Shown here piece by piece: positions 12,385 through 60,077 of a stretch of 64,000 nt of DNA (its first letter is position 1; each line of letters starts with the position of its first letter). The notes below the pieces were generated by a model, which searched no databases, was not told the DNA's origin, and saw only the letters and a list, made by a program, of their open reading frames with translations. The translations under genes and the position numbers were made by a program. The stretch lies in IMG/VR virus record IMGVR_UViG_3300013233_000856, positions 1 to 64,000 of that record; one strand, given 5' to 3'. The stretch comes from a virus.

Positions 12385-13498
12385 ACGCCTCTATCAGCCG
12401 GAGCTCGTACGACGAGTCATGGTTAAGCTCGCCGAACCTCGTGGACACCGTACCGCGCCTTGACCGGACCAGTCCGCGCCTTCGCAGGTCCGAGATCAGC
12501 AGCGACTGTCTACGCCTCCTGTCCAGGTCTGACCACAGCTCCGACTGCTTCCTCCGGACGACCTCGACGTACTCCGGATGGTCCTCCCAGAACTTCCTTC
12601 CAAAGACGGCACCGACCTCGGCGCAGTACCTCCTCGTCTCCTCGACGTGCCTGCGTCCATGAAACGGATTGCCACCGCCAGAGAACATCTCGGACACAGC
12701 ATCCGGCCTCACGCCCTCCCCGACCAGGATCCGCTTGACTGCCTCGACGGTACAGCCGAACCTTGCCGCAACCCTGCTCATGGAGCCGACCGCACGATAC
12801 GCACCGAGCACGGCCCCACGGTCGAGCCGCTGGTTCCTCCTCGAGATCGAAACCTTCTCTATCCCGTACTTTCTCAATCTATAGTCGACGAAGCCCACTC
12901 CCCTGCCGATGAACGAGGCTATCGCCGGCATGCCGTATCTGCAATATGCGTTCCTGAACCACTCCTCCGTGTCCTCATATGGCGGCAGGTCGGTCGGTAC
13001 GGACTCACTGCGACGCTTGCGCACCATCCGGGGCTTCCGGACCGGCACTCCGCCCTCCACGAGGACCTTTCTCACGACATAGGTGGACACGCCATGCCTG
13101 CTGGCCACCACGTGCATGCTGTCGCCGGACCCATACTCCCTGCAGATGACCGCGCGGTCAATGCCGTCCACGGCCACCTTCACTTCATGCTTCTTGAGCA
13201 CGCGACCGACCGCAGCGACTGACCTGTCGGTATCCTCGGCTATCCTGGAGACCGTCAACCCACGCCCCCGGAGCGAGACCACCCTCCTCACGAACTCCGG
13301 ATCGAACCTAGACCTCTGAGCACCTGACCTAGATCGAGACAGGCCAAGATGTCTGAACAGCTTCCCGACCGTGCGCCGCGGAACGCCAAGCAGGACACCT
13401 ATCTCCGCCTGAGTCTTGCCCTCGCCGAACCACGCCCTCACGCGCTCCTTGTCGGACTTGGAGAACGTCTCGTGAACAGGAACCGGAACAGAACCCAT
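12293..13498 (-). CDS. N-terminal part of frameshifted HTH-nuclease-Mom-like fusion
   Basis: Residues 10-300 contain at least four helix-turn-helix units, such as TQAEIGVLLGVPRRTVGKLF and LTVSRIAEDTDRSVAAVGRV. A basic linker follows, then the first half of a PD-(D/E)XK nuclease (SSYELRLIEACDSDGR...DFDLVPYEFGG). Reading stops nine codons after a run of six G (six C at 12317-12322 on the plus strand). Removing one G would join it to 11524-12384 as one protein of about 640 residues. The ATG follows a GGGAGAAGG site overlapping the stop of the upstream methyltransferase fusion, so the two are coupled. The frameshift may be a mutation, a sequencing error or programmed. Confidence 0.8.
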   Translation of the reverse strand: MGSVPVPVHETFSKSDKERVRAWFGEGKTQAEIGVLLGVPRRTVGKLFRHLGLSRSRSGAQRSRFDPEFVRRVVSLRGRGLTVSRIAEDTDRSVAAVGRVLKKHEVKVAVDGIDRAVICREYGSGDSMHVVASRHGVSTYVVRKVLVEGGVPVRKPRMVRKRRSESVPTDLPPYEDTEEWFRNAYCRYGMPAIASFIGRGVGFVDYRLRKYGIEKVSISRRNQRLDRGAVLGAYRAVGSMSRVAARFGCTVEAVKRILVGEGVRPDAVSEMFSGGGNPFHGRRHVEETRRYCAEVGAVFGRKFWEDHPEYVEVVRRKQSELWSDLDRRRRQSLLISDLRRRGLVRSRRGTVSTRFGELNHDSSYELRLIEACDSDGRVVRLERDFDLVPYEFGGKGETLRP

Positions 13499-24118: not shown

Positions 24119-25417
24119 TCAGTCTCTCACGAAGATATATTTTTTGAGAGGCGGCAGACGCACCTTCCTATAGCCGAACCTCCGCGCAAACTGCGCCTCG
24201 GTCATGTGGCTGGACCTAGCCCGGTTATAGAGCGTCTTCTTGTGCAGCTTCCACCCGTCCTCCCCCACGTAGAAGTAAGTCCCTGCAGTCTCGCCCATAA
24301 AGGACCAGTTTGAGGCGAGATATATCGTGCCGAGATGACCGTCCCCCGGACTGGCGTAGCTTATGACCGCACGGCACTTCTCCGGCAGCATCCTGACGAA
24401 CCTCGACAGGGCACGGCTTGGCAGGTTGCGGCAGGACACCCCGCTCGATATGCAGAACCTAGTCAGCTCAAGGACCTCCCCATGTCCGAAACCGGTGCCC
24501 AGGCACGACTCGTTCCTGGTCGGATGGGCGAACACCGCTCCGCAGACCAGCTCGTCCCCGACGAACCCGCCAAGCTGCACACCGGCACGCCCCATCGAGC
24601 CGAGATAATGGTTCGAGGACATGAACGCACGCATGGCACCGAGGTCGACCACGCCGAACCGGACGTCGCGCAGCCTGACCTTCCTGACCGTCGAACCAAG
24701 GCCAAGCCACCTCTCCACGGCACTCCTCACCCTTGCCGGATCATAGAGCTGATGCTCCCACACCACCCTAAGCTCGTAGCCCGGAAGGCCGGCTACGTAG
24801 GACGCCTTCGCCTCGTCCCTGCGGATCACGTACGGACGCGTGTGCCAGTAGTTGCCGTGCACCTCTATCAGGACGGTCTTCTCTCCACGGTCGACGGCCA
24901 CGTCGAACGAGTACGGCCCCACGGCGACCTCCGTGCGGTACTCGACCCCCATCGACCCCAGTACGTCATGAAAGCGGACCTCCGTACCGGATACCCTTCC
25001 AGACTGCTGTGACCTGGCGACGGCATGGGCCCGGCGGTACTCCTCGCTCCTCCAGGCCCTGGCTGCAGCCTCCGAACACTTCCTGCGGCTAGACTGGTCG
25101 GACACGGCTATGGCATGTCGTCTGCGGTACTCCGGATCGGACCAGAGCCTGGTCGAGGCGTCCTTTCTATGTCTGCGGTATTCTGTATCGGCCCATCGCC
25201 TCGAGGCGGCCGTGGACAGACGCTGCCTGGTGCCGGAGCCTCTCGATGCGCACGATGGGCACCACCAGTCCATCTGTCCATCCCTTATCCTGGACTTGAC
25301 GCGCACGGTGATGGCCCTGATCGTTCCACAGCCGTCGCAGCGGACCATGACCCTGGGCCTGTATGTTGACATGTCGGTGCCACCGAGTTCTCTTGCGGTC
25401 AGGTCCCAGTCTATCAT
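24119..25417 (-). CDS. EDxHD (Vsr-like) homing-type nuclease fused to Mom-like domain
   Basis: Residues 27-57 form a zinc ribbon (CDGCG...CPSC). Residues 70-140 hold about four short helical modules of the type RLWSDPEYRRR. Residues 145-225 are a Vsr-like nuclease with the EDxHD residues E146, D172, H192 (HGNYWH) and D201. Residues 250-400 are the Mom-like domain: NHYLGSMG, VLELTRFCIS, then SYASPGDGHLGTIYLASNW and LHKKTLYNRAR. In this copy the Asp of the usual (Y/F)AD triplet is Ser. It stands between terminase and portal, a classic place for a free-standing homing gene. The Shine-Dalgarno site is weak. Confidence 0.85.
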   Translation of the reverse strand: MIDWDLTARELGGTDMSTYRPRVMVRCDGCGTIRAITVRVKSRIRDGQMDWWCPSCASRGSGTRQRLSTAASRRWADTEYRRHRKDASTRLWSDPEYRRRHAIAVSDQSSRRKCSEAAARAWRSEEYRRAHAVARSQQSGRVSGTEVRFHDVLGSMGVEYRTEVAVGPYSFDVAVDRGEKTVLIEVHGNYWHTRPYVIRRDEAKASYVAGLPGYELRVVWEHQLYDPARVRSAVERWLGLGSTVRKVRLRDVRFGVVDLGAMRAFMSSNHYLGSMGRAGVQLGGFVGDELVCGAVFAHPTRNESCLGTGFGHGEVLELTRFCISSGVSCRNLPSRALSRFVRMLPEKCRAVISYASPGDGHLGTIYLASNWSFMGETAGTYFYVGEDGWKLHKKTLYNRARSSHMTEAQFARRFGYRKVRLPPLKKYIFVRD

Positions 25418-28400: not shown

Positions 28401-29162
28401 GTATAGCCTTGGCAGGTGGTCGTAGACGAACTTGACGTTCTTCTTCAGGAACTCCTTGGCGTCCTCGTCGCGCTTGGAGACAATGAGCACCTTCTTGTTG
28501 GAGAAGAACATGGCGTACCATAGCGCGAACGCGCCGGTCAGGGTCGATATCCCGCAGTTATGCACAACTGCGCCGTCCACGATATAGTTGTGCGAGGACG
28601 GAACGTTAAGGTCAAATACCCTGTCCGTGCGGTCCAGCGGACGCACCGACTTCACGGCACCCTTGACGAACGAGAGCGTCTCCCTGGAGACTTCGACGAG
28701 CACGTCGTCCCGGACAAGCCCAGAGACACTCTTCCAGTCGCCCTCTGTCAGGAACTCGTGATCGGCGGTACAGACCGATCTGTGGCCGGTCTCCGTGCAC
28801 ACCTCCATGAGGTCATCCGCCAGCCCGTTGTCATAGACCTCCTTTACCGGAGCGGTCGTCACTCGACCTTCCGTCACCGTATAAACCAAGTCTCCCGGCT
28901 GTAGAGTCTCGATTGCCTTTGGTCCACTTGGCGTCCACACCATGGTGCCGGCCACGAAGCATTGACGGCACTTCCTGTAGATGTTGTAGCGGTTCTTGAG
29001 GTACATCTGCAGGGATCTGCGCTGATAATTGAACAGGTTAAACGGGATAATTCCGGCCTTTGGATGCTTGACCTTGCAGAAGTTGCTGACGAAGAATATT
29101 GGACTCTTCTGACAGCGCTTGAGGAGCCTGGGTACGAGAGCACCACCAGTCTTCCTGCTCAA
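25425..29162 (-). CDS. Terminase large subunit, T4 gp17-like, with two inteins
   Basis: The spliced host protein would be about 640 aa. The ATPase P-loop region reads CRQ, intein 1, then CGISTLTGAFALWYAMF. Walker B is LNIIDEAAFMP, followed by intein 2, then TLIHGGSVVVISTVNGVGNW (coupling motif). The C-terminal nuclease begins near GVDISSGEASDYSAIVVVD. It packages DNA into the prohead and cuts it. TTG start overlapping the upstream stop (TTGA). Residues 68-202 and 317-786 are the inteins, each flanked by Cys at one end and Asn at the other. Confidence 0.95.
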   Translation of the reverse strand: MSRKTGGALVPRLLKRCQKSPIFFVSNFCKVKHPKAGIIPFNLFNYQRRSLQMYLKNRYNIYRKCRQCFVAGTMVWTPSGPKAIETLQPGDLVYTVTEGRVTTAPVKEVYDNGLADDLMEVCTETGHRSVCTADHEFLTEGDWKSVSGLVRDDVLVEVSRETLSFVKGAVKSVRPLDRTDRVFDLNVPSSHNYIVDGAVVHNCGISTLTGAFALWYAMFFSNKKVLIVSKRDEDAKEFLKKNVKFVYDHLPRLYKDIYGDPPDLYNEHSVGFSNGSVIKSLTSSKDTMRSESASLNIIDEAAFMPSMDDMWAGAQPCCAYGTVVSTGRGLKRIDKMLEEAGSPGAKTYAPQDIVLPTDAGPQSSNAIWNNGYCRTIRIRTSLGYEFEATSRHRIKVLDEDYAWKRLSCVQNGNLACLMLNTCVGEPVSLADPEPALVCLDGCSDKDQIDVSCKRCHKSFTRRVVSLRRFRDDSGHYVCPSCAHHGDFVPPERMTEELAEILGYYVGDGWLSEKRPKRIKLSCDPGYGDLPRKLVDRYAKVGVSSYIEPGHDTLEVRVNNASFVDWLVRQGLNSKTNAFDAQIPAPVLASGPQILCAFLRGLFEADGTITGGRISLSTSSATLADQVRTSLLSLGILTHTSVTRSGGFEGSSGGYVIGVLDRRNCQRFQNKIGFLSNGKNSVVLQDPKQENGLCIEHPVVEELCDAALRTTTDKKQRARIYGYRRTCRIPYQRALEISDGTTKLGRLLDKGLVFDKIVSIENDSTLTADLSVPTNNTYIANGFVSHNTLIHGGSVVVISTVNGVGNWYHTTWEDAASKSNEFNPIEIMWWDMDWAIEYRDDFTGEVNRICPTDGIRECVTKGEREKWGPYWSPWLEEQYRALQQKGESHKFRQEVLAEFIGTGQTVVPRDVLVHLDTAVSDKYFIAEPVPYIHPTTGARHILDFQRQLRIWKPPVKPEPDVMENGRIIRPGASGHAYSVGVDISSGEASDYSAIVVVDCNTLEQVAEMLIRVLPTTLVMMIDYIGRWYNNSFCVPERTGIGQPICTSLYNDFAYSNIFRMPMPSGRPSRKVGFPTSPVHKPMLNKALMDYLGEDGVTVLSKRIVEQLHIYVHLGSKRTGCVEGPGNHDDLTIALALACVGIKNASIADPSSLVPMQANKSEDEPLLTAGDTARMGRMLQAGGAQAMLPLIPGGGAETAMPGDELRRFAASMGGITMSSEQVPFLQRKAKQVKFDQAVRPVIRRPSR
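26805..28214 (-). mobile_element. Intein 2 in terminase, with LAGLIDADG endonuclease
   Basis: About 470 residues between Pro316 and Thr787. Starts CCAYGTVVSTGRGLKRI and ends NTYIANGFVSHN before Thr. Inside are a zinc ribbon (CKRCH...CPSC) and two LAGLIDADG-type motifs (LGYYVGDGWL and LRGLFEADGTI). It looks like a complete, homing-competent intein inserted just after Walker B. Confidence 0.92.
28557..28961 (-). mobile_element. Intein 1 (mini-intein) in terminase
   Basis: 135 residues. Starts CFVAGTMVWTPSGPKAIETL, has CTADHEFLT as block B and ends SHNYIVDGAVVHN before Cys203. No endonuclease domain. It splits the P-loop of the packaging ATPase. Confidence 0.93.
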
Positions 29163-40990: not shown

Positions 40991-41063
40991 CGTCCTCGCC
41001 AGGACTCGAACCTGGAACCTGCGGATTAGGAATCCACCGCTCTATCCATTGAGCTACGAGGAC
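40991..41063 (-). tRNA. tRNA-Arg (anticodon CCU)
   Basis: A full cloverleaf on the minus strand: acceptor GTCCTCG/CGAGGAC, D-arm TAGCTCAATGGATAGAG, anticodon loop TTCCTAA with CCT, T-arm GGTTCGAGTCC. The discriminator base is G and CCA is not encoded. It reads AGG, a common Arg codon in this phage's genes. The aminotransferase stop codon lies inside its 5' part. Confidence 0.95.
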
Positions 41064-42175
41064 ACTGAACCCACCATAGCAGCCCGCCTACGCACTACCG
41101 AACACACGTGAGCCACCTGCTCATCGGTCAACCTGGGCGAAGACGGTAACACCACACACTCCCTGTTCAACCTAGAACTGTTGGCCTCCCCCAGGGGATT
41201 GACGAACTTCAGAAGATGAGCATGCGCCGACATTGGATAGAACATCGGACGTACCTCAATCCCGGCCTCCGAATAGTACCGCTCCGCAGACACAAAGTCA
41301 TCCCCCAGCACTCTGATGCCTACAAGCCAGCACAAAGAATGCAAGGACCGTTCCTGCATGGCCACGCCAGGGATCCCGGTCAGGCCCCTACGATATCCAT
41401 CATAGACCCTCTTCTTAGCGGCAAGGATCCCGTCAAGCCTCCCAAGCTGGGAATAGAGAAGCGCAGCGTGCAGGTTCGACATCCGATAGTTGTAGCCCAG
41501 GCAGCCGTGCACGAACCTAAGCGGTGACTGGGCCTGGGCGTGCAACAGGTAGAGATGCAGCATCAGCTCAGGGTCTCCCGACAGCACAGCCCCACCCTCC
41601 CCGCACGTGACTGTCTTGTTGCCATAGAAGGACACCGAAGACGCCAGACACGCTGTCCCAGTGAGACCGCCATGGGGACCATAACGTCCGAGGAAGCCCT
41701 CGCAGTTGTCCTCCACTATGACGTAGCCCGGCAGCCTAGACGCCAGAGCCGGCACGTCCACCGGATTGCCGAGGGCGTGGACGACGAGGACCGCAGCCTC
41801 CTCTGGGCCAAGTCCTGAAGCAACCTGGACGACCTCGTCAAGGTCGAAGTTCCAGGTGTCCAGGTCAGAACGCACAGGGATCAGGTCGAACTCCGGACCA
41901 TACCTGAAGGCGTTGTATGCCGCAACGTACGCATTGTCCGGCACGATCATCTTCCGGACGGACGGTCTAGCCCACGCCACTGCGTGTGCGAGAAGATGCG
42001 TCGCCGCAGTGCCGGAGCTGACAAGCAGGACATTCCTCACGGAGCTACGGGCACGCAGACGCTCTGCTGCCAGCTCCTTGTAGGCACCGAGCGAGGATAC
42101 CCATCCGGACCTGACGGCGTCCGTTACCGCCAGGACATCCTCTTCAGTGACGTCTGGTTCGTAGACCGGTATCAT
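41054..42175 (-). CDS. DegT/DnrJ/EryC1/StrS-type sugar aminotransferase
   Basis: 373 aa of the PLP-dependent sugar aminotransferase family: MIPVYEPDVTEEDVLAVTDA start, SSGTAATHLL for cofactor phosphate, IVEDNCEGFLG with the pyridine-binding Asp, SFYGNKTVTCGEGG with the Schiff-base Lys near residue 184, and YNYRMSNLHAAL. It converts a nucleotide-linked keto sugar to an amino sugar. The adjacent formyltransferase suggests an N-formylated amino sugar as product. Its stop TAG lies within tRNA-Arg; its start overlaps the upstream stop (TGATG). Confidence 0.93.
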   Translation of the reverse strand: MIPVYEPDVTEEDVLAVTDAVRSGWVSSLGAYKELAAERLRARSSVRNVLLVSSGTAATHLLAHAVAWARPSVRKMIVPDNAYVAAYNAFRYGPEFDLIPVRSDLDTWNFDLDEVVQVASGLGPEEAAVLVVHALGNPVDVPALASRLPGYVIVEDNCEGFLGRYGPHGGLTGTACLASSVSFYGNKTVTCGEGGAVLSGDPELMLHLYLLHAQAQSPLRFVHGCLGYNYRMSNLHAALLYSQLGRLDGILAAKKRVYDGYRRGLTGIPGVAMQERSLHSLCWLVGIRVLGDDFVSAERYYSEAGIEVRPMFYPMSAHAHLLKFVNPLGEANSSRLNRECVVLPSSPRLTDEQVAHVCSVVRRRAAMVGSVSS

Positions 42176-42480
42176 CAGTATGTCTTGTGCTTCCTCTGAA
42201 CGTGCCGTCCGTCGTCCAGGTCCCGCCCAGCCACCGCGTCCCGGACGATCTCGAGCACCTTCTCGTCCAGCTCGTCGATCAGGGCACTGCGCTGGACGTT
42301 CAGGTCACAGCACTTCTTTACGCTCTCATAGAGGTCACGCAGCCCGTCACTGCTGCCGAACCTATTCCTGAACTCGTCGAACGACATCCTGCGGACCTCG
42401 TATAGGAACTCCTGGTTGTTCCACATCTTCATGTCGACGGTCACCAGCTTGTCGACCAGACCGCCAAGCGTGTCGGCCAT
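42175..42480 (-). CDS. Small protein of sugar-modification cluster, 101 aa
   Basis: Strong AGGAGGTGA site before the ATG. Helical, starting with GGLVDKLVTVDMKMWNNQEF and then RRMSFDEFRNRFGS, with a CC pair near residue 60. I have an impression of similar small proteins in glycan clusters but cannot name a family. It is coupled to the aminotransferase start. Confidence 0.7.
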   Translation of the reverse strand: MADTLGGLVDKLVTVDMKMWNNQEFLYEVRRMSFDEFRNRFGSSDGLRDLYESVKKCCDLNVQRSALIDELDEKVLEIVRDAVAGRDLDDGRHVQRKHKTY

Positions 42481-42494
42481 TCTTCACCTCCTAA

Positions 42495-42505
42495 GCATAT
42501 GTACA
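42495..42505 (-). promoter_or_regulatory. Candidate promoter, TACATATG variant
   Basis: TGTACATATGC on the minus strand, 14 nt upstream of the 101-aa gene and adjacent to its AGGAGG. Confidence 0.35.
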
Positions 42506-42515
42506 TCGCAGGAGA

Positions 42516-43181
42516 TCAGGACAGGTCCTGAAGAATGTCACTGCTCACCAGGGTAAACTGCCTGCTCCCAAGCTCCACATAGGCCCCGCCATGCGGCGGG
42601 CACCAGAACGCACGCACCTTCCTCTCGACCAGCTCCACTGAATCGCCAGGAGCCACGCGACGGTGCTCCTCCATCGCCCTCCGACCGTAGTATCTTCCCC
42701 TGGCCTGCGGCCGACACGGCAGGCGTCCACCGGGACGCTCCATAGCCATGCCCATCACGCCAGCCAGGAGCGAAGGTAGGTGCCCGCGCGCAAGGTCGCG
42801 CAACCCCTTTGCGGTGATCCTCTCCGGATCCGGGACGTCGAACCTCCTCGTCATTATCACCGGCCCAGTGTCGAATCCCTCGTCCACATAGTGAGCCGTG
42901 CAGCCCCATCGCGTCTCTCCGTTCAGGATGCCGAAGTTATAGACCGCGAGCCCACGGTATTCGGGGAGCGGTGCGGGGTGAAGGTTAACCGTGCCCATGG
43001 GCAGTTCAATGAACTGCTCCGGAATACGCCGGTGATAGCAATAGGACACGGCCACGTCGCCCTCCGGTCTCTCGGGCAGCACGTCGTCCTCGGTCACCGC
43101 CTGCACCGAGTAGCCCAGGGACTCCAGGACGTCCGAGGCCTCACTGGCCAGTCTCCCCGGAGCAAGCAGAGTCACCATCAT
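42516..43181 (-). CDS. Sugar N-formyltransferase-like protein
   Basis: 221 aa. GTVNLHPAPLPEYRG (about residues 75-90) holds the catalytic Asn and His of the formyl-tetrahydrofolate transferase fold, and HYVDEGFDTGPVI holds the catalytic Asp. Similar enzymes act on methionyl-tRNA or on nucleotide-linked amino sugars; the adjacent sugar aminotransferase favours the latter. ATG 43181 has CAGGAG at 8 nt. Confidence 0.87.
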   Translation of the reverse strand: MMVTLLAPGRLASEASDVLESLGYSVQAVTEDDVLPERPEGDVAVSYCYHRRIPEQFIELPMGTVNLHPAPLPEYRGLAVYNFGILNGETRWGCTAHYVDEGFDTGPVIMTRRFDVPDPERITAKGLRDLARGHLPSLLAGVMGMAMERPGGRLPCRPQARGRYYGRRAMEEHRRVAPGDSVELVERKVRAFWCPPHGGAYVELGSRQFTLVSSDILQDLS

Positions 43182-43274
43182 GGAGCCATCTCCTGCGCGC
43201 GTCAGCTGCCTATGTATCCACAGCATTTACCTCGGCACCATTTCCGATATGGCAGGACCGAAAGGAGAACGACG

Positions 43275-44716: not shown

Positions 44717-45721
44717 TCAAAGGCCATAACCAATGCCGATAGTCTTGAACGCAACAAACGTGTTACTGCTATTAGAGGACATCGCCTCGAACTGACCATC
44801 TGCGCCGATCCTCACGACTCCAAAGTTCCACCCCGCAGTAGCCCCCGCACGCGTGATCCTCAAGTCCCATGCTCCAGACCCATTTGGAGCCACCACCGCA
44901 TTGTTCACGTCGCCTACGTTTCCGGTTATCCTACATGTCGCCATGAAGGCAGTCTCCCACGGCTTCCTGCCTGCATTGACGTCCCACGGGGTTGTATGCG
45001 CAGCACCATTCGTGCTGACCGTACGGACCGTCGCGACCGTGTTAAAGTCAGCAGTGCTGTTGTTTGTTCCAACGTTCCCGAACGCAGTCATGGACGGCCT
45101 CGCCACGAAAGACAGCCTTCGCAACGCCGAATCAGTAGGAACGGCCATCGGGCGCGACAGAAAATAGTCGACCCCGCTCCCGGACATCTCCATACCGATG
45201 CTGAATTGCGTCGCGTCCAAAGGAATGGACCTGGACACGATCAGCCGCTCCCAGTTGGTATTCGCTTCATGATCCAGACTGCTGGTTGTGCCTCCGCCAG
45301 TCCCATTGCTCGTTATGAACAGCCTCACGGCATTCGATGCCACAATGGACATCTTAACCTCAGCAGAGAAAGTGAGCGTCAGACCAAGCGTTCCAAACAG
45401 CATGGAGTCAATCGTGCTCGACTCACCCTTGACGTATGGAATCTCCACGATAGGATCACTGGACCCGACACTGATCACGGACACCTTCAACGACATCCCG
45501 GCTCCACCCGGAACCGTAGTCGAATCCCCGGACACGAGAATGTTCGGAGACCCAGGCCCGACCGTAGACCGCCACCCCACGACCTCATGATTCTTTGAGG
45601 ACGAAGCGACGTTGTTCCGCTGGATCGTGGTCGTATGCGTGCCCATGAGCACGCCTAGTCCAGGATTTATGACAATATTGCTCTGAGGCCTAACGGCGCC
45701 CTGTCCAAACACTATAGCCAT
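44717..45721 (-). CDS. Fibre- or virion-surface-like protein, 334 aa
   Basis: Thr/Ser/Gly/Asn/Val-rich, beta-structured and without Cys-rich or catalytic motifs. A stretch STNGAAHTTPWDVNAGRKPW with AWDLRITRAGATAGWNF further on is typical of phage surface proteins. It has its own candidate late promoter. Base composition is less GC-rich than its neighbours, which may indicate recent acquisition. Confidence 0.72.
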   Translation of the reverse strand: MAIVFGQGAVRPQSNIVINPGLGVLMGTHTTTIQRNNVASSSKNHEVVGWRSTVGPGSPNILVSGDSTTVPGGAGMSLKVSVISVGSSDPIVEIPYVKGESSTIDSMLFGTLGLTLTFSAEVKMSIVASNAVRLFITSNGTGGGTTSSLDHEANTNWERLIVSRSIPLDATQFSIGMEMSGSGVDYFLSRPMAVPTDSALRRLSFVARPSMTAFGNVGTNNSTADFNTVATVRTVSTNGAAHTTPWDVNAGRKPWETAFMATCRITGNVGDVNNAVVAPNGSGAWDLRITRAGATAGWNFGVVRIGADGQFEAMSSNSSNTFVAFKTIGIGYGL

Positions 45722-45736: not shown

Positions 45737-48700
45737 TTACAGGTCCAACAGGAACCTCCTCTTCCGACCGCCAAACACCCTCCGGAAACCACCGGCCTCC
45801 GCATACTCCCGCTCAGTCAACGACATCTTCCTGGCATGCTGATACAGCGTCTTCTTATGCAGAACATAGCCCTCACCATCCACATACCAATAGTCCGGCT
45901 GCACGAACCCATCCAAGCGCCAGTTCGAAGCAGAATAGATCGTCCCCACATGATTATACGTCTCATCGCTGAACGAAACAAGACGCCGCACCACAGGACG
46001 CAGCTCACGGACCAGCCGCACCGCCCTAGACAGGAACCACGAAGCAAGGTTCTTCCTACGGAACGCAGGACGGATACAGAACCTAGAAAGCTCAAGCACC
46101 TCCCGCACCGACATCCCCATCCTCGAAGCAACCTCCCTACGGACCACTGGCGCAAACACCGCAACCGCAGCCAAGTCCCCGCCACGGAAACACCCCACCT
46201 TCACCCCACCCCGCCCGATGCACCCAGCATAGTGATGCCTCGCCACGAACGCAGAAGCCTCCACCATCCCGATCTCCCGCACCGACAGCTCATCGAACGA
46301 AAAGTCAACCGCATCCTCCACGGCAAGGCCCGTCCAATACCGCACCAGGTCAAGGACCCTACCGCGAGCATGGAACTCATGCTCCCACACATGCTTCACC
46401 CGATACTGCGGAAAGTACCTCGCCACGTACGTCGCCTTCGCACGGTCCCTCGCGGCCACCGAGCGCAGACCATGCCAATAGTCGCCCTGAACCTCCACCA
46501 GAAGACCATGCTCCGGCAGGAAAAAGTCGAACACATAGAACCCCACGCGAAACTGCTGAACATACTCGATCCCCAGCTCATCCAGGAACGAAGAAAAGAG
46601 CACCTCCACGCTCGACATCCTACCGGACTGCGAAGAACGGATCACCGCCATCCGCTCCCGGAACTCAGGATCAGCCCATGCCCTCCTCGATATGGCTGAC
46701 ATCTTCGCCCGGAACTCGTCCGAGGAGAAGACCTCCATCATCCGCTCCCGGAATTCAGGATCCTCCCACGCCCTACGGGCAGACTCCGAAGCCTTCGCCC
46801 GGAACTCATCCGAAGAGAAGACCTCCATCATGCGCCTACGGAATTCAGGATCCGCCCACATCTCCCTGGAAGATTCAGCACACTTCGCACGAAACTCATC
46901 CGAGGAGAAGACCTCCATCATCTTAGAACGGAACTCAGGGTCTTCCCACCTCCTCCTGATTGCTTCTGTCATCCGCTCACGGGATTCTGGATTGACCCAT
47001 TTCTGTCTAGCGACCTCAATCATCCTGGAACGGAACTCGGGATCCGTCCACTTCTCGCCGACCAGCCCTGACATCTTCTCCCGAAACTCGTCAGAGGAGA
47101 AGACCTCTGCCATCCGCCTGCGGAATTCAGGATCCGCCCATCTCCCTCTGACCAGCCCGGACATCTTCTCCCGAAACTCATCCGACGAGAAGACCTCCAT
47201 CATCCTAGAACGGAACCCTGGATCCTCCCACATCTCCCTAGAAGATTCAGCACACTTCGCACGAAACTCATCCGAGGAGAAGACCTCCATCATCTTAGAA
47301 CGGAACTCAGGGTCTTCCCACCTCCTCCTGATTGCTTCTGTCATCCGCTCACGGGATTCAAGATCCTCCCACGCCCTACGGGCAGACTCCGAAGCCTTCG
47401 CCCGGAACTCGTCCGAAGAGAAGACCTCCATCATCCGCTCCCGGAATTCAGGATCCGCCCACGCCCTACGGGCAGACTCCGAAGCCTTCGCCCGGAACTC
47501 ATCCGAAGAGAAGACCTCCATCATCCGCTCCCGGAATTCAGGATCCGCCCACCTCTCCCTGGAAGATTCAGCACACTTCGCACGAAACTCGTCAGAGGAA
47601 AAGACTTCCACCATCTTAGAACGGAACTCAGGGTCTTCCCACCTCTCCCTGACGAGTCCAGACATCTTCTCCCTAAACTCGTCAGAGGAAAAGACCTCCA
47701 CCATCCTAGAACGGAACTCAGGGTCCTCCCACCTCTCCTTGGAAGCTGCGGACGCCGCCTTTCTCCGAACAGGATCGTCCCATGTCCTTGCTGAAGCCCT
47801 GCCTACGGACTGCCTGTATTCCTCGGAAGCGAAGATCTCGAGCATCCTGGACCTGAAACCATCGTCCGCCCACAGCCGCCTAGATGTCTCCGACATCCTG
47901 CGCACGACCTCAGGATCGGAATAACGGGCAGCAAGCGAACTTACTACCCTCTCGCGGAACCCATCCTCCCTCCAGAGGTTCCTGATGGTCTCGGACATCC
48001 GGGCCCTCCTGTCCGGATCTGACCAGACATCACGGGACACCAGCCGCATCCTCTCCCTGAACGCCTCCGACGAGAAGACAGCCATCATCTTCTCCCGAAA
48101 CTCCGGATCCGCCCACCTCTCCCTAGAGATCCTAGACATCTTCTCCCGGAACTCGTCCGATGAGAAGACCTCCATCATCCTAGAACGGAACTCAGGATCC
48201 TCCCACAGGTTCCTTGACCTTTCAGACATCATCCTGCGGAACTCATCCGAGGAAAAGACCTCCATCATCTTAGAACGGAACTCAGGGTCTTCCCATCTCT
48301 TCCTGACCAGCTCAGACATTTTCGCCCTGTTCGCAGGATCAGACCAATGCCTAGAGACTGCACTCGACACCCGTTCACGGTATCCAGGATCCTTCCAAGC
48401 ATTGCTTGCCGCCGAAGACAGTCTCCTACGACGCTCTGGGTCCGCCCACAGCTGCTCCATTCTGTCACGAAAGGCAACGGTCCACGCACGACGACCGAAT
48501 TCGGACATTAGGCTCCTATGCTCGTCGCTGGCCATCCGCTTCTCGGCAGCAGCACGGCGCTCCGGGGTCCACGCACACCGCCCGCACTCGGCCATTCGCC
48601 GCCTGAATTCCTCTGAGCTGCGCAATTCAGAGACACGCTCACGGAACTCAGAATCCCTCCACATCTCCACCGAACGCGCCGACGCCCTCCTGATATACTC

Positions 48701-49555
48701 CGGATCATGCCACAGCTCTGCCATCCGCTCCCGGAACTCAGGAGTCCACGCACGCCGCCCATCCTCCGCAGCACGGGCCGTCTTCATCTCCCTGAACCCA
48801 GGCTTCAACCACGCCTCCCGACCAGCCGCAGACGCCTTCTCCCTGAACTCAGAAGAATCCCACACCGCACGCATCCGCTCACGGAACGCAGGATCCGCCC
48901 ACATCCTCCTGGAACGCTCTGACATCCTCCCAAGGAACCCAGGATCCCCCCACAGCTCCGCCATCCGCTCCCGAAACTCAGGAGTCCACGCGCGCTTCCC
49001 GAACTCGCTCATCCGACGCCTGAACTCATCATCCACCATCCGCTCGCGCCACCACCCCCTAGCCTCGCGCCAGAACTCCTCCGAAGCAGACCTAAGCTGC
49101 CTCCGGAACTCGTCGGTATAGATCCCGTCGAACTTCCCGTCACGATGAGCATGTGAAAGGCCACAGGCATTGCAGCGGAACCTTCCATCGTTCCTGCGGC
49201 GGTTCGCACGCACGTTCCTCAGCCTGGCCCGCACCTCCTTGCCGCAGAAGTCGCACTTCTCCGACACCATCGAACTGGACGGAGTCCCATGCCTCTCACG
49301 GGCCCTGGCACGGATCTTCTCCCGGTACTCGTCCGTATGCACATACCCGTTCACCACGCACCGCCGGCACACAAACTGACCATCGTTCCTCTTCTGGTTG
49401 TTCAGATAGGAACCATACTTGACCTCCTGCTCCACACCACACCGGTCACAGGAGACCATCACCCTGTCGGAACGCCTATGCTTGCCCTTAGTCAAGACCA
49501 TGACAAAGCCCCACAACAGCCCTCGATTACATATCCGACACGGCAACATTGACAA
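45737..49555 (-). CDS. Giant modular DNA-binding array - EDxHD nuclease - Mom-like fusion
   Basis: 1272 aa. Residues 20-130 hold two zinc ribbons (CDRCG...CRRC and CDFCG...CNAC). From about residue 145 to 975 run some 50 helical modules of 14-16 residues, alternating RWEDPEFRSKMMEV and FSSDEFRAKASESARR types. Residues about 980-1065 are the Vsr-like nuclease (VEVLFSSFLDELGI, FDFFLPEHG, VQGDYWH, RDRAK: E, D, H, D all present). Residues about 1085-1265 are the Mom-like domain (RHHYAGCIG, VLELSRFCIRPAFRRKNLAS, SFSDETYNHVGTIYSASNW, LHKKTLYQHAR). The modules recall the NUMOD-type helices of homing endonucleases but no such long array is known to me. Start uncertain: the frame opens at 49555, and ATG 49501 is another option. 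Confidence 0.85.
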   Translation of the reverse strand: MSMLPCRICNRGLLWGFVMVLTKGKHRRSDRVMVSCDRCGVEQEVKYGSYLNNQKRNDGQFVCRRCVVNGYVHTDEYREKIRARARERHGTPSSSMVSEKCDFCGKEVRARLRNVRANRRRNDGRFRCNACGLSHAHRDGKFDGIYTDEFRRQLRSASEEFWREARGWWRERMVDDEFRRRMSEFGKRAWTPEFRERMAELWGDPGFLGRMSERSRRMWADPAFRERMRAVWDSSEFREKASAAGREAWLKPGFREMKTARAAEDGRRAWTPEFRERMAELWHDPEYIRRASARSVEMWRDSEFRERVSELRSSEEFRRRMAECGRCAWTPERRAAAEKRMASDEHRSLMSEFGRRAWTVAFRDRMEQLWADPERRRRLSSAASNAWKDPGYRERVSSAVSRHWSDPANRAKMSELVRKRWEDPEFRSKMMEVFSSDEFRRMMSERSRNLWEDPEFRSRMMEVFSSDEFREKMSRISRERWADPEFREKMMAVFSSEAFRERMRLVSRDVWSDPDRRARMSETIRNLWREDGFRERVVSSLAARYSDPEVVRRMSETSRRLWADDGFRSRMLEIFASEEYRQSVGRASARTWDDPVRRKAASAASKERWEDPEFRSRMVEVFSSDEFREKMSGLVRERWEDPEFRSKMVEVFSSDEFRAKCAESSRERWADPEFRERMMEVFSSDEFRAKASESARRAWADPEFRERMMEVFSSDEFRAKASESARRAWEDLESRERMTEAIRRRWEDPEFRSKMMEVFSSDEFRAKCAESSREMWEDPGFRSRMMEVFSSDEFREKMSGLVRGRWADPEFRRRMAEVFSSDEFREKMSGLVGEKWTDPEFRSRMIEVARQKWVNPESRERMTEAIRRRWEDPEFRSKMMEVFSSDEFRAKCAESSREMWADPEFRRRMMEVFSSDEFRAKASESARRAWEDPEFRERMMEVFSSDEFRAKMSAISRRAWADPEFRERMAVIRSSQSGRMSSVEVLFSSFLDELGIEYVQQFRVGFYVFDFFLPEHGLLVEVQGDYWHGLRSVAARDRAKATYVARYFPQYRVKHVWEHEFHARGRVLDLVRYWTGLAVEDAVDFSFDELSVREIGMVEASAFVARHHYAGCIGRGGVKVGCFRGGDLAAVAVFAPVVRREVASRMGMSVREVLELSRFCIRPAFRRKNLASWFLSRAVRLVRELRPVVRRLVSFSDETYNHVGTIYSASNWRLDGFVQPDYWYVDGEGYVLHKKTLYQHARKMSLTEREYAEAGGFRRVFGGRKRRFLLDL
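46640..49120 (-). repeat. Tandem coding repeat array, 90-bp higher-order unit
   Basis: About 50 half-units of 42-48 bp make 90-bp pairs. Units between about 46660 and 48330 are so similar that whole blocks recur (the blocks near 46900-46980 and 47260-47350 are almost identical). The array stays in one frame throughout. This indicates repeated duplication and gene conversion. Confidence 0.9.
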
Positions 49556-49569
49556 CCAAGTACAGATAC

Positions 49570-49603
49570 GCAGATGGCCCAGGATTACTCCTGGGCCATC
49601 TGC
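49570..49603. terminator. Perfect 15-bp hairpin after the sheath gene
   Basis: GCAGATGGCCCAGGA and its exact complement around a 4-nt loop, 24 nt beyond the sheath stop (minus strand). No T run follows on either strand. Probably marks the 3' end of the sheath transcript. Confidence 0.7.
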
Positions 49604-49626: not shown

Positions 49627-52494
49627 CTACTGGACAGTACTGGTGACTACACCGCCAGCCTGCAGAACCTCATCCGAGGAGAACGAAGCGTCAGTCCTGA
49701 GAACAACCAGATTGAGCTGTATGAACTCCGCTGTCCTTGTGGGCTTCAGGAAGAAAGCAACGTGAAGCTCATTCCGATCGATGCGCTCAGGCGTATTGTT
49801 CCGTTCGTCGCTCACCACCAGGAATCCGTTCAGCCCTCTCCTGGCCTGTATGTCGGCAAGGAAGGATTCGCTGACGTTCACCACGCGTGCCCGGGTGATC
49901 TCGTCGTTTGGCTCGAAGACGAACTGCCGGAGGAAGTTGATCGCGTTCTTCTTGATGAAGATCAGGAGCATCCTGACGTTCACCCGGTCTAGGGCAGACT
50001 GCTTGCGCTGGAGCGTCCGCTGTCCAAAGACCGTTATCCCGTCCTGTGGGAAGTTGACGATCGGATTGACCGCGTTCCCAAAGCCGTACATCAGGTCGCG
50101 CTCGCCCTGGGTGAGGTCGACCTCAGTGTCGAGCGGGGTGAGGAGCCTGCCCCTGGTGGTGCCGGCTGGGGCGAACCAGATCTCTGCATCGCGCTCGGTC
50201 CTAGCATAGACGCTACTGACCTGCCCACTGGGCGGGACGAAGATGGTCTCGCCGCTGAACTGGTCGAAGATCTTGAGCCAGGGATGGTAGAGTGCTCCGT
50301 AGCTGGAGTCGATGGAGTTGGCCAGGTCGCTGAAGAGTATGCCATTGTGCCAGTCGACGACCTGCTGGGCGCGGAGTCCGAATGGGCTGTCGACGATGAA
50401 GAGGCAGTCTCCGCGCCGTTCACACATCTGGAGGGCCTGCCCGATGACGGCTCCGGAGGTGACTCCGGGGATGACCAGGAGGGTGATGTCGAAGACCTCG
50501 GGATTCTGGAAGGCGAAGATTCCGGTCTCGAGGTTGGGGTTGCCTATGATGGCCCTGTCCAGCTCCGAAGAGAAAGCGGGGTCGGTTGGGATGCCGTTGG
50601 CCGCGCCGGTGAAGCCGCTCCTGTTGAACTCTCCGGGCACTCGGACCTCGAAGGAGGCGAGGTCGTTGACCGGGTCGTTGGCGAGGAAGGCTGGTCTCGG
50701 GATCCATTGGATGAAGGCGTTGCCGTTGGGGCCTCCGAACCTGGATCCGGCGTTGATCACGTTGCCGACGTAGCGTTCCTCTCTGGGGTCGAAGGAGACA
50801 TCGTCCACGGCGTCGACGGTGAGGTTGTTCTTGTCCTCGATGACGATGCGGAACCTTCCCGCAGCGTCGGTGCCGCCTCCTGTCTGGGTGAAGACCTGGA
50901 GGGTGACCTTGAAGTCGTCGATCCAGGTGCCTGCGCTCTTCGAGACGAACCAGCCCACTACGTTTTCATAGTAGATCGAGTCGGCGAGGCATTCGTCGCT
51001 GGAGGGGTCGACCTCGCAGGAGAGTGGCGAGGAGGGAGTGATGGTTCCGGACTCCGGGAGCAGGACGCGGGGGTCGTTGAAGACCTGGAACTCCCTGGTG
51101 TAGGGGAAGAGGATACCGAGCTCCTCGGCGAAACGGAGTGTCTTGAAGTGGGATCCGTCGGCCTGCATCTTGATGCGGTCGAAGCGGTTGTCGGAGGTGG
51201 TCTCGATGACGATCTGGACTTCGCCACCGGGGATGATGACGGTGAAGGCGTTCCAGAACCTGGTTCCGCCGTCGATTCCACCAAGGTGTATGGCGGAGGC
51301 TATCGCGGTGGAGGACTGGGCGAGCCCGACGGGGACGCTGAACTCGATCTCGGTGGTAGACTGCTGCCCGATGACCTCGACGTTGACCCTGTTGTTGCTG
51401 GTGGTGATGTCGTAGGGGCCTGCGGTGGTGGTGAGCAGGTGGCTGCGGGGGATGTCGAAGGCCCACAGAACCTGTCCGACCTCGAGAGCGAAGGCCTCGG
51501 TCCCGGTCAACTGGATGCTCTCTCCGGCGATCCTCGTGGTGAAGCAGACGGTCCCGTCCGCTTCTGCGACGGCGAGGTATGGGTCGGAGTCCGGGACGAG
51601 GGCGTTGACCGCGTCTGCGAAGGTGGTCGCGTCGGTGAAGGAGGACCCGTCGGCGAGGGAGTAGGTGGTTGCTCCTGCTCCGGCGACGAGGTCTGCCTCG
51701 ACGGCGAACGAGAGGTTGTCCGGTCGTACGGTGAAGGTGAAGGTGTCGTTGGCGGCGATGGGGACGGTCCCCGTGACGACGACCTTGAACAGGAGCCCCT
51801 GTCCGGCGTCGATCACTTCAGACTCGCCTGGGGTGGCGGACTCGACTAGGACGTCGGTGAGGACGGTGGCTCCGTCGGAGTTGCGGATGACGTCGAAGGT
51901 GGCTCCGTCAAGGAGGGAGCCGCCGGTGGTGGGGACGTCGCTGGTGATCAGGACGGTGAAGCTGTCGTCAATCGGTCCGGTGTAGCCGGCGAGGTCCACG
52001 AAGGTGAGGGTGGCTGAGGCCGGTCCGTCGGTTGGGGTGATCTCGACGTCGTTGTAGTCGATGTCGGTGACGAGGGCGGCGTGGAACTCGAGGGGATCGT
52101 CTGCGGTGATTACCCTGGTGCAGATCTTGCCGTTGTCGATGCCGGAGAAGACGGCTATACGCCCCCAGCCCTTGCCGCGGGCTCCGCTGTTGTCGATGCA
52201 GACGCTGGAGAGTTCCTCTGGCTGTCCGTCCTCGCACTCTACGCCGACCCGCATGATCCAGGCGCGGTTTCCCTCCTCGAAGTAGGAGAGGGCGGCGTAT
52301 CCGAGGAAGGACTCGGGAAAGGGTTCGCCGAAGACGTCGATGTACTGCTGGGCGTTGCTGACGAAGGTCGGCTCCTGAACCGGACCCTTCTTTGCAGTGC
52401 CGATGAAGGCCGGTGTGAGCGCTCCGGTGGCCGCTGGGACGATGCTGAGGTCGATCTCGCGGGGGAACACTCCGGGCGAAAGGAAGACGGGCAT
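49627..52494 (-). CDS. Tail sheath protein, T4 gp18-like
   Basis: 955 aa from MPVFLSPGVFPREIDLS (GAGGAG before the ATG). The N-terminus and the C-terminal domain (ITVFGQRTLQRKQSALDRVN, LLIFIKKNAINFLRQFVFEP, ELHVAFFLKPTRTAEFIQLN) are diagnostic of contractile sheath proteins. T4 gp18 is about 660 aa, so this one carries some 300 extra residues in the middle, beta-rich and acidic, likely surface-exposed. Sheath contraction drives the tube into the host. A candidate late promoter lies about 58 nt upstream. Confidence 0.95.
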   Translation of the reverse strand: MPVFLSPGVFPREIDLSIVPAATGALTPAFIGTAKKGPVQEPTFVSNAQQYIDVFGEPFPESFLGYAALSYFEEGNRAWIMRVGVECEDGQPEELSSVCIDNSGARGKGWGRIAVFSGIDNGKICTRVITADDPLEFHAALVTDIDYNDVEITPTDGPASATLTFVDLAGYTGPIDDSFTVLITSDVPTTGGSLLDGATFDVIRNSDGATVLTDVLVESATPGESEVIDAGQGLLFKVVVTGTVPIAANDTFTFTVRPDNLSFAVEADLVAGAGATTYSLADGSSFTDATTFADAVNALVPDSDPYLAVAEADGTVCFTTRIAGESIQLTGTEAFALEVGQVLWAFDIPRSHLLTTTAGPYDITTSNNRVNVEVIGQQSTTEIEFSVPVGLAQSSTAIASAIHLGGIDGGTRFWNAFTVIIPGGEVQIVIETTSDNRFDRIKMQADGSHFKTLRFAEELGILFPYTREFQVFNDPRVLLPESGTITPSSPLSCEVDPSSDECLADSIYYENVVGWFVSKSAGTWIDDFKVTLQVFTQTGGGTDAAGRFRIVIEDKNNLTVDAVDDVSFDPREERYVGNVINAGSRFGGPNGNAFIQWIPRPAFLANDPVNDLASFEVRVPGEFNRSGFTGAANGIPTDPAFSSELDRAIIGNPNLETGIFAFQNPEVFDITLLVIPGVTSGAVIGQALQMCERRGDCLFIVDSPFGLRAQQVVDWHNGILFSDLANSIDSSYGALYHPWLKIFDQFSGETIFVPPSGQVSSVYARTERDAEIWFAPAGTTRGRLLTPLDTEVDLTQGERDLMYGFGNAVNPIVNFPQDGITVFGQRTLQRKQSALDRVNVRMLLIFIKKNAINFLRQFVFEPNDEITRARVVNVSESFLADIQARRGLNGFLVVSDERNNTPERIDRNELHVAFFLKPTRTAEFIQLNLVVLRTDASFSSDEVLQAGGVVTSTVQ

Positions 52495-52551
52495 TTGTTT
52501 ATCTCCTCGTTCCGGCATTTGGCATTCAGCGTCTGCTGTCCGCCGAGACAT

Positions 52552-58244: not shown

Positions 58245-58256
58245 ATAGGTTTGTCC
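58245..58256 (-). promoter_or_regulatory. Candidate late promoter of the protease-neck fusion
   Basis: GGACAAACCTAT on the minus strand, 16 nt upstream of the start and next to AGGAGG. Confidence 0.5.
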
Positions 58257-58271
58257 GGAAGGAGAGCACAG

Positions 58272-60077
58272 ATGGCCAGGCAGATTGTGCAGATCGACCT
58301 AGACGAACTACGGAACGACTACCTGTCCGGAGCATCCATGCGCAGCCTCGCCAGGAAGCACCGGACCACCAGGCCGACCATAGCCAAGAAGCTGCGCAGC
58401 ATGGGCGTCAAGATCCTATCGTCAAGGGAACGGGTGACCTCCGACCCAGAGGCACACAGAAGGGCGTCCGCAAGGAGGGGGCATAAAAGCACGACGGCCA
58501 TGCCCGTAAAGGAACGGCTCGCAGCAACGACGAACGAATGGGACAAACAAGGATTGCTTAGGAAGCTCTATGTCGACGAGAAAAGGAGTTGCGCGGAGAT
58601 AGCGAAGAGATTAGGGTGCCACCGGGAGACGATCAGGTCCCGCCTCCACCGGCACGGTATACCTGTTAGAAGCATCGGCGAGGCAAGCCGCACTGCAGCT
58701 GCAAGGCCAGACACCAGGGCCAGGAGATCAAGGGCGTCCTCGTCCAACTGGCTCGACGAGGACTACAGGAAGAGGGTGTCCGGTAAGCTGCGTGGTAAGA
58801 GCGTCAAGATGCCTCCGGAGCACTCGAACAACGTCTCTGCGGCAATGACTAGGCACTTCTCGGACCCAGACAACGTGCGCAGGCATGCAGAGAAGATAAG
58901 GAGGTCATGGAATAAGCCGACTGAAGCAATGCTGAAGCACCTGGGGAACCTGCACGACGGACTCCGCAACGATGGCGAGATGCGCAGAAAGCTGCTAAGG
59001 ACGCAGTCTGACAGGTTCCGTGAAGAGAAGCGCGAGCAGGCCTTCAAGCACTGGGCAGACGAAGATTTCCTTAAGAAAGGCCTGCCGACGATGAAGAGAA
59101 AGTGCTCCGAGGCCGCGCGGAGGGCGTGGAAGGACCAGGTCTACCGCAGAAAGGTCCTAGACAGCATCTCAAGGAACTCCACCAGCCGCCTGGAGAGGGT
59201 GACAACTGGAATCCTGGACGACCTTGGGATCGCCCATTGCAAGAGACGATTCGGCCGCCAGATGTTCGAGTTCGACGTGTGCATAGGAGCCGACGAGCTT
59301 CGTCAGGACCGCGGTCTACTGATAGAGGTCAACGGCCTCTACGTCCACAGCCGGAGCAAGCAGATAGAGCGGGACACAAGGAGACATCGGTTCTGGGAAA
59401 AGCATCTCTCCGACGAGTGGAGGTTCGAAACCGTCTGGGAGCACGACATGAGCGCATACAGGGTCTTTTTCAACAGGATGGTCTCCATGCTCGGAATCAG
59501 GCCGGAACGAAGGAGCGTAAGACTTAGGGATCTTGAGTTGACGCAGATCGAGCACGGGGAGGCGTCGTCCTTCTATGACAAGTATCACTACCTCGGTCGA
59601 CACAGGCGCGGCGTCCACCTCGGTGCCATGCTCGACGGGTCGCTGGTGGCCTGCTGCGCCTTCGCCGCGCCAACGAGGATGGAGACTGCAGCCCGCCTTG
59701 GTCTGGAGTATGGCGAGGTCCGTGAGCTGTCCAGGTTCTGCATCTCTCCCCTGGTCCATGATCCAAACATGGCATCGTTCGTCCTGTCTAGGTGCAGGAA
59801 ACTGTATTCGTCCGGACATCCAGAGGTGCGGGCCTTCGTAACGTTCGCAGACGGCGAGATGGGGCACCTCGGGACGATGTACCTGGCCTCGAACTGGAAG
59901 CTGGACGGGACCACGGCCCCGTCCTATTTCTACGAGATGGATAGCCTGCGATGGCACAAGAAGACCGTCTGGGACCATGCCAGGAGCGTCGGGGCCAGCG
60001 AGAGGGAGTTCGCCGAGGCAGTCGGGATGACCAGGGTGCAGACCGGCAGAAAGAGGAGGTTCGTCCTGTTCACATGA
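58272..60077 (+). CDS. HTH - EDxHD nuclease - Mom-like fusion, 601 aa
   Basis: ATG 58272 follows GGAAGGAG. Two helix-turn-helix units lie near residues 10-45 (ASMRSLARKHRTTRPTIAKK) and 105-135 (CAEIAKRLGCHRETIRSRLH). Helical modules like HFSDPDNVRRHAEKIRRSW follow. The Vsr-like nuclease has RLERVTTGILDDLGI, FEFDVCIG, IEVNGLYVH and IERDTRRH (E, D, H, D). The Mom-like end has YHYLGRHRRG, VRELSRFCISPLVHDPNMAS, TFADGEMGHLGTMYLASNW and WHKKTVWDHAR. It lies between the two halves of the neck gene and is coupled by ATGA to a glycosyltransferase. Confidence 0.87.
   Translation: MARQIVQIDLDELRNDYLSGASMRSLARKHRTTRPTIAKKLRSMGVKILSSRERVTSDPEAHRRASARRGHKSTTAMPVKERLAATTNEWDKQGLLRKLYVDEKRSCAEIAKRLGCHRETIRSRLHRHGIPVRSIGEASRTAAARPDTRARRSRASSSNWLDEDYRKRVSGKLRGKSVKMPPEHSNNVSAAMTRHFSDPDNVRRHAEKIRRSWNKPTEAMLKHLGNLHDGLRNDGEMRRKLLRTQSDRFREEKREQAFKHWADEDFLKKGLPTMKRKCSEAARRAWKDQVYRRKVLDSISRNSTSRLERVTTGILDDLGIAHCKRRFGRQMFEFDVCIGADELRQDRGLLIEVNGLYVHSRSKQIERDTRRHRFWEKHLSDEWRFETVWEHDMSAYRVFFNRMVSMLGIRPERRSVRLRDLELTQIEHGEASSFYDKYHYLGRHRRGVHLGAMLDGSLVACCAFAAPTRMETAARLGLEYGEVRELSRFCISPLVHDPNMASFVLSRCRKLYSSGHPEVRAFVTFADGEMGHLGTMYLASNWKLDGTTAPSYFYEMDSLRWHKKTVWDHARSVGASEREFAEAVGMTRVQTGRKRRFVLFT

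What the first reader, a model, noticed from the sequence alone, without database searches (positions are those of the whole stretch)
45737..49555. Array of about 50 tandem DNA-binding-type modules in one nuclease
Between zinc ribbons and the nuclease domain lie roughly 50 helical modules of 14-16 residues. They alternate between W(E/A)DPEFRxxMMEV and FSSDEFRxKxxESxRR types, giving a 30-residue period. Single modules of this look occur in homing endonucleases (NUMOD-type) and a few in the sister gene at 24119. An array this long resembles modular DNA-recognition proteins such as TAL effectors and might read a very long target, or be expanding without selection.
Basis: partly seen in the sequence, partly recalled or inferred. 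Interest (0 to 1): 0.9.

Follow-up and report, generated by a model that had tools for sequence, protein, structure and literature searches.

The report
Homing endonuclease with 52 DNA-binding-type repeats
A phage gene for a selfish DNA-cutting enzyme carries an unbroken row of 52 short helical repeats of a kind other phage homing enzymes carry 3 to 22 of; the repeats are real and kept by selection, but nothing shows that they read out a long DNA sequence letter by letter.

Summary
ORF 45737-49555(-) encodes two zinc ribbons, an unbroken run of 52 helical modules (54 in all), a Vsr-like EDxHD nuclease (closest solved relative I-Bth0305I, 3R3P) and a C-terminal Mom-like domain (8BV8). Modules are 13 or 17 residues long (30 = 13+17), not 14-16. 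They are NUMOD3-like: same helix signature, and interleaved with Pfam NUMOD3 units in phage GIY-YIG enzymes; the array itself stays below the Pfam NUMOD3 model. About 80 relatives have a median of 6 modules and at most 22. Related phages carry the same gene family at the same place, just behind the tail-sheath gene, with 4-9 modules, or nothing: a homing-type presence/absence pattern. So the array probably grew here, by block duplications. Even the youngest copies (94% identical DNA) keep protein sequence better than chance (P 0.005), against neutral or artefactual growth. No TAL-like two-residue hypervariability, near-neutral charge (+7 over 827 residues), and same-site relatives with under 10 modules argue against a letter-by-letter reader. 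Best reading: a free-standing homing endonuclease whose NUMOD3-type DNA-contact array expanded to a record length. New variant of a known kind; a GerD-like structural rope is the main rival.

The parts
45737..49555 (-). Whole gene: free-standing EDxHD-type homing endonuclease with expanded module array (1272 aa from TTG; ATG at aa 19 is an alternative start)
49346..49468 (-). Zinc ribbon 1 (Cys36, 39, 63, 66)
   Evidence: Cys pairs invariant in relatives at the same site
49151..49264 (-). Zinc ribbon 2 (Cys101, 104, 128, 131)
46628..49126 (-). Module array aa 144-976: 53 NUMOD3-like helical modules of 13 or 17 residues, 52 of them in one uninterrupted run from aa 173
   Evidence: helices predicted
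46325..46627 (-). Vsr-like PD-(D/E)XK (EDxHD) nuclease domain, aa 977-1077; E984, D1010, E1021, H1028 and D1036 present
   Evidence: PDB 3r3p E 4e-13; Vsr and MTES_1575 sub-threshold Pfam hits; positions
45740..46303 (-). Mom-like GNAT-fold domain, aa 1085-1272
   Evidence: PF25680 E 2.7e-25; PDB 8bv8 E 5e-15, Foldseek E 5e-11
49571..49602 (-). 14-bp perfect hairpin (CAGATGGCCCAGGA / TCCTGGGCCATCTG) between sheath stop and the endonuclease gene, terminator-like; similar inverted repeats follow the sheath gene in most close relatives
   Evidence: sequence read
49627..52551 (-). Tail sheath gene, upstream neighbour that marks the insertion site
   Evidence: PF17482, PF04984; 235 relatives in viral contigs
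24119..25417 (-). Sister endonuclease (4 modules, same nuclease and Mom domains) between terminase and portal genes
58251..60077 (+). Paralogue with HTH domains and few modules before the same nuclease and Mom domains

Best explanation
The gene is a free-standing phage homing endonuclease of the EDxHD (I-Bth0305I, Vsr-like) type, fused to a Mom-like domain. It sits behind the tail-sheath gene and, by analogy with known homing enzymes, cuts that region in related phages that lack it so that it is copied in during repair (inferred). Its array is a tandem expansion of NUMOD3-type helices. In characterised phage homing enzymes such elements contact the DNA next to the cut; here they most likely add extended, mostly low-specificity contacts over a long stretch of DNA, with the zinc ribbons and a few modules giving the address (inferred). 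The array grew from an ancestral state of roughly 4-9 modules by repeated in-frame block duplication (shown: copies and block offsets; ancestral state inferred from same-site relatives), and purifying selection on the protein has kept the copies (shown).
For: Nuclease domain matches 3r3p at E 4e-13, with E, D, H and D of the EDxHD motif in place. Same-family genes lie directly behind the sheath gene in other phage loci (L105, L108, L110, L111, L122, L135, L138, L013, L014) and are absent there in others such as L104, L106, L107, L113, L116 and L119. The N-terminal two-ribbon region is alignable with L111, L122, L013 and L014, 33-41% identity. Five further family members are in the same phage, next to terminase/portal, a DNA polymerase III alpha gene and others. 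Modules share the NUMOD3 profile, mean score 6.5 against -14.3 shuffled, z 17, one register only, and interleave with Pfam NUMOD3 units in GIY-YIG enzymes L189, L193, L195; similar modules occur in SegE-type GIY-YIG enzymes and in isolate phages SP-15, phiA8-29 and FLC6. Relatives: median 6, maximum 22 modules, n = 82. Selection.
Against: No DNA-binding or cleavage is shown. Net charge of the array is +7 over 827 residues and negative in its youngest third, whereas relatives' arrays are mostly basic (median +7 per 100). Pfam NUMOD3 does not hit the array. Pfam and NCBIfam GerD models do. The tree leaves the exact position of this protein unresolved, although its five nearest rows are all short-array members of, or next to, the sheath-site group.
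Confidence: 0.7

Rival explanations
1. The array is a structural rope or oligomerisation spacer with the geometry of the GerD core rather than a DNA-contact surface: kinked helices wind into a long superhelix, perhaps joining subunits, and DNA recognition is left to the zinc ribbons and nuclease.
For: Pfam GerD core E 1.9e-53 and NCBIfam spore_GerD over their cut-offs; the GerD fragment 4o8w shows the same 13/13/17 spacing of DPxY/F helices; it is the only PDB fold match, though weak, E 0.38; array nearly neutral with a regular hydrophobic pattern at positions 0, 5, 9 and 12. GerD is described as a trimeric superhelical rope (PMC11841064).
Against: The same modules are attached to different nuclease types in phages and merge with NUMOD3 units; the conserved R6 and K/R8 are not explained by a GerD-like core (the 4o8w fragment lacks them in most units); Foldseek match is not significant; relatives' arrays are mostly basic.
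Confidence: 0.15
2. The array is a modular reader, one module per few base pairs, that recognises a target of 150 bp or more in the manner of TAL effectors.
For: Number and regularity of modules; module sequence under selection; some positions vary at or near the synonymous rate (position 7 in the 13-type; 9, 12 and 16 in the 17-type).
Against: Variation is spread over the helix C-terminal half with few states per site, not two hypervariable residues; many modules are identical, e.g. WEDPEFRSKMMEVF three times and FSSDEFRAKASESA three times, which carries little information; same-site relatives manage with 4-9 modules.
Confidence: 0.06
3. Neutral or near-neutral runaway expansion of a tandem repeat in a selfish gene, with no benefit from the extra modules.
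For: Array length varies widely between relatives and between sister pairs (14 in L022, 22 in L029); block duplications at offsets of 30, 107, 124 and 231 residues; homogenised young part is charge-neutral.
Against: Amino-acid differences between copies are about half of a mutation-matched null for four block pairs (6 vs 10.7, 14 vs 26.5, 20 vs 35.1, 10 vs 18.1); frame is intact over 3.8 kb.
Confidence: 0.07
4. Assembly artefact: repeats wrongly multiplied in a metagenome contig.
For: Virus record from metagenome assembly; longest exact repeat 119 bp.
Against: Copies differ at 6-23% of bases in the recent block pairs and far more elsewhere; assemblers collapse rather than multiply such repeats (established knowledge); frame is preserved throughout.
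Confidence: 0.02

Closest known systems
I-Bth0305I (EDxHD homing endonuclease, PDB 3R3P)
   Same: Vsr-like nuclease domain (E 4e-13), motif residues, phage-type enzyme with an extended multi-domain DNA-binding part; a review reports a target of nearly 60 bp bound as a dimer (PMC3943268)
   Different: No Mom domain in the 105-residue solved domain; array here has over 50 modules; free-standing gene behind a sheath gene
NUMOD3 (PF07460), nuclease-associated modular domain of GIY-YIG and HNH homing endonucleases
   Same: 17-residue unit; N-cap S/D, then E, R/K, K, hydrophobic, S in the same register; mixed arrays of both kinds exist in L189, L193, L195
   Different: G-K-K linker of NUMOD3 replaced by W-x or F-S; Pfam model does not score the array; 13-residue short form
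Phage Mu Mom (PDB 8BV8, PF25680)
   Same: Sequence and fold of the C-terminal 190 residues
   Different: Fused to a nuclease; no evidence that it modifies DNA
GerD central core (PF17898, PDB 4O8W)
   Same: 13/17-residue spacing of DPxF/Y helices; model scores above cut-off
   Different: Spore lipoprotein of Bacillus, short, no nuclease; weak fold match
T5orf172 phage homing genes with repeated zinc-finger domains (PMC10448857)
   Same: Repeated DNA-binding domains with intragenic recombination between repeats
   Different: Other nuclease, other repeat, far fewer copies

Membership tests
EDxHD homing endonuclease | Nuclease domain homologous to I-Bth0305I catalytic domain | tested here: met
   3r3p E 6.9e-9 and 4.2e-13
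EDxHD homing endonuclease | Conserved E, D, H, D active-site residues | tested here: met
   E984, D1010, H1028, D1036 present; D, H and last D invariant in the 54 aligned sequences; 3r3p itself shows Ala at the aligned D and H positions, probably an inactivated construct (inference)
EDxHD homing endonuclease | Mobile: present and absent alleles at one site in related phages | tested here: met
EDxHD homing endonuclease | Cuts the empty allele | not testable with these tools
   needs an assay
NUMOD3 | Scores above the Pfam gathering threshold | tested here: not met
   no hit in the ORF; one sub-threshold hit elsewhere in the genome
NUMOD3 | Shares the helix signature and register with NUMOD3 units | tested here: met
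   z 17 against shuffles, single register (units picked by hand from Pfam-hit proteins); natural mixed arrays
TAL effector | 33-35-residue repeats with two hypervariable residues | tested here: not met
   13/17-residue units; variability spread
TAL effector | TAL superhelix fold | tested here: not met
   Foldseek of the array model finds no TAL structure; pTM of the model only 0.42
GerD | Core model above cut-off | tested here: met
GerD | Short protein (174 model positions in NCBIfam) without other domains | tested here: not met
   1272 aa with zinc ribbons, nuclease and Mom domains
Mom | Mom family profile and fold | tested here: met
Mom | DNA adenine modification activity | not testable with these tools
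   needs an assay

The most novel reading that the evidence does not exclude
A natural, very long modular DNA-contact array in which each helix reads or spans a few base pairs, so that one protein engages 150-300 bp beside its cut site, coupled to a nuclease and a DNA-modifying Mom domain in one chain.
Probability: 0.1. Interest if true: 0.9.

Novelty: new variant of a known kind. Interest (0 to 1): 0.52.

Why it matters
It is the longest array of NUMOD3-like modules found here, at least twice that of any of 82 relatives, at a site where related enzymes have 4-9. That contrast makes a clean test of what these widespread but hardly studied modules do: affinity, reach, specificity or only spacing. 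The family also joins a homing nuclease to a Mom-like domain, an arrangement for which no description turned up in the papers searched. For annotation, the array is wrongly caught by the GerD models of Pfam and NCBIfam.

Tried and rejected
A first relative search with the full protein found one distant locus only, because its patterns fell mostly in the array; the profile of the C-terminal part gave 79 loci. Direct PDB sequence search with the array gave only chance-like nitrile hydratase and GerD hits. tblastn against phages, and against plasmids with the array alone, gave only partial or no matches. Near-identical phages with a different array length were sought by a pattern scan and not found. 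The gene downstream (44717-45721) has no family and no counterpart in the sheath loci, so the far side of the insertion could not be fixed. My first family profile had absorbed one Mom-domain motif and overcounted by one in most proteins (and the labels of the tree); corrected. A multiple alignment of whole arrays is unreliable in register, so no per-module orthology between phages was attempted. Coordinates of the AlphaFold2 models were not available, so no surface charge map or DNA docking could be made.

Full report
OBSERVATION. The open frame 45737-49555 on the minus strand encodes 1272 residues. Its layout is: two zinc ribbons (Cys36/39/63/66 and Cys101/104/128/131, invariant in relatives at the same site), a helical module array from about residue 144 to 976, a Vsr-like nuclease, and a Mom-like C-terminal domain. 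A position profile with dynamic parsing finds 50 modules with a profile trained on this protein alone and 54 with a family profile, 52 of them without a break; 200 shuffles of the same sequence give 1.3 on average and 6 at most. Spacing is 17 (27 times), 13 (20 times) or 16 (3 times); the 30-residue period is 13+17, with 40% identity at lag 30 against 10% expected. In relatives the commonest spacings are 17, 13 and 21, i.e. steps of four residues, about one helical turn.

WHAT A MODULE IS. AlphaFold2 gives one helix of 12 or 16 residues per module, with a single-residue break at the conserved D/S that caps the next helix (mean pLDDT 92 in both models; pTM 0.63 and 0.42). The consensus is W/F-x-D/S-P/D-E-F/Y-R-x-K/R-M-S-E: positions 0, 5, 9 and 12 are hydrophobic, 6 and 8 basic. 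This is the signature of NUMOD3 without its G-K-K linker. NUMOD3 units taken by hand from Pfam-hit proteins score 6.5 on the profile of the W-type modules and -14.3 after shuffling (z 17), in one register only. In the GIY-YIG proteins at L189, L193 and L195 both unit types alternate within one array. The Pfam NUMOD3 model itself does not hit the array, so the modules are NUMOD3-like and are not filed as Pfam NUMOD3.

WHAT THE PROTEIN IS. The nuclease part matches the catalytic domain of I-Bth0305I (3r3p) at E 4e-13 and keeps the EDxHD residues. The C-terminal part matches phage Mu Mom by profile (E 2.7e-25), by solved-structure sequence (8bv8, E 5e-15) and by fold (E 5e-11). PHROGs already hold families spanning both domains under 'homing endonuclease' and 'HNH endonuclease'. 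The same phage record (140.5 kb) has five more members: at 24119 between terminase and portal, at 58251, at 64 kb, behind a DNA polymerase III alpha gene near 105 kb (named from its sequence, not by a family search), and a split copy at 11.5-13.5 kb. Such a spread next to conserved genes is typical of free-standing homing enzymes.

THE INSERTION SITE. Eighty loci with a related tail-sheath gene were compared. A gene of this family lies directly behind the sheath gene in L105, L108, L110, L111, L122, L135/L136/L138, L013 and L014; none is there in L104 (75% identical sheath, as close as L105), L106, L107, L113, L116 or L119. The gene starts shortly after a terminator-like hairpin that also follows the sheath gene in most close relatives. 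Four of the occupied loci share the two-ribbon N-terminus (33-41% identity). All same-site members have 4-9 modules; the 4 of L108 comes from an incomplete copy at a contig end. In the tree the window protein has an unresolved position, but its five nearest rows are the short-array L009, L008, L014, L013 and L105. The parsimonious reading is growth of the array in this lineage; loss in all the others is less likely but not excluded.

HOW IT GREW, AND WHETHER SELECTION ACTS. DNA self-comparison shows block copies at offsets of 30, 107, 124, 201, 231 and 325 residues with 77-94% identity. dN/dS between modules of one class is 0.25-0.50. For four block pairs the number of amino-acid differences was compared with a null that places the same base changes at random: 6 against 10.7 (P 0.005), 14 against 26.5, 20 against 35.1 and 10 against 18.1 (none of 4000 draws as low in the last three). 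The copies have therefore been kept as protein. The longest exact repeat is 119 bp, so a false multiplication by assembly is unlikely.

WHAT THE ARRAY DOES. Shown: it is a helical repeat shared by phage homing enzymes with different nuclease domains (EDxHD, SegE-type GIY-YIG) and by isolate phages SP-15, phiA8-29 and FLC6; the array model also matches predicted structures of phage homing enzymes, mostly weakly. Inferred: like other NUMOD elements it contacts DNA, as summarised for phage homing enzymes in PMC3943268. Against a base-by-base reader: no pair of hypervariable residues, many identical units, and same-site relatives with under 10 modules. Against strong DNA affinity per module: net charge +7 over 827 residues, and below zero in aa 616-969, while relatives' arrays have a median of +7 per 100 residues. 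The serious rival is a GerD-like rope: GerD models score above cut-off and the GerD fragment 4o8w has the same 13/13/17 spacing, but its fold match is weak (E 0.38), and GerD is a spore lipoprotein forming a trimer (PMC11841064).

VERDICT. Real, selected, and the longest array of its kind found here (next: 22 modules in L029). It is a new variant of a known kind, an EDxHD homing endonuclease with NUMOD3-like modules, not a new class. The TAL-like reading is possible but poorly supported.

Noticed in passing
window 25425-29162 (-): Terminase large subunit with two intein-like insertions: two Intein_splicing stretches and one LAGLIDADG_3 domain in one gene.
   Followed up: partly
window 11524-13498 (-): A further HTH-rich relative of the endonuclease family appears split into two overlapping frames (12293-13498 and 11524-12384), by a frameshift in the middle of its nuclease domain; sequencing error, decay or programmed shift not distinguished.
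   Followed up: partly
window 45740-46303 and all paralogues: The nuclease is regularly fused to a Mom-like domain in many phage contigs; no paper describing the fusion was found. A nuclease and a modification domain in one homing enzyme suggests self-protection, untested.
   Followed up: partly
window 46628-49126, array aa 145-973: NCBIfam equivalog spore_GerD and Pfam GerD hit the array above their cut-offs, so automatic annotation would misname this phage nuclease as a spore germination lipoprotein.
   Followed up: yes
L087-L090: Contigs filed as Lokiarchaeota MAGs encode the same nuclease-Mom family, with up to 19 parsed modules in L087 (one may be a Mom-domain overcount); misbinned phage or archaeal virus not distinguished.
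   Followed up: no
window 20606-20835: 81-bp tandem repeat (2.8 copies) of a Cys-rich, zinc-ribbon-like unit inside the 1132-aa ORF 18933-22331, which has no Pfam hit.
   Followed up: no
window 13502-15202 (-): 566-aa ORF with a LAGLIDADG_3 hit, possibly another intein or homing enzyme.
   Followed up: no
window 41054-43226 (-): DegT-type aminotransferase and formyltransferase genes, as in amino-sugar synthesis, within the tail gene region.
   Followed up: no
L014 and sheath loci L109, L111, L121, L124: Some related phages have a family member on both sides of the sheath gene or just upstream of it, so the sheath gene seems a repeated target.
   Followed up: partly
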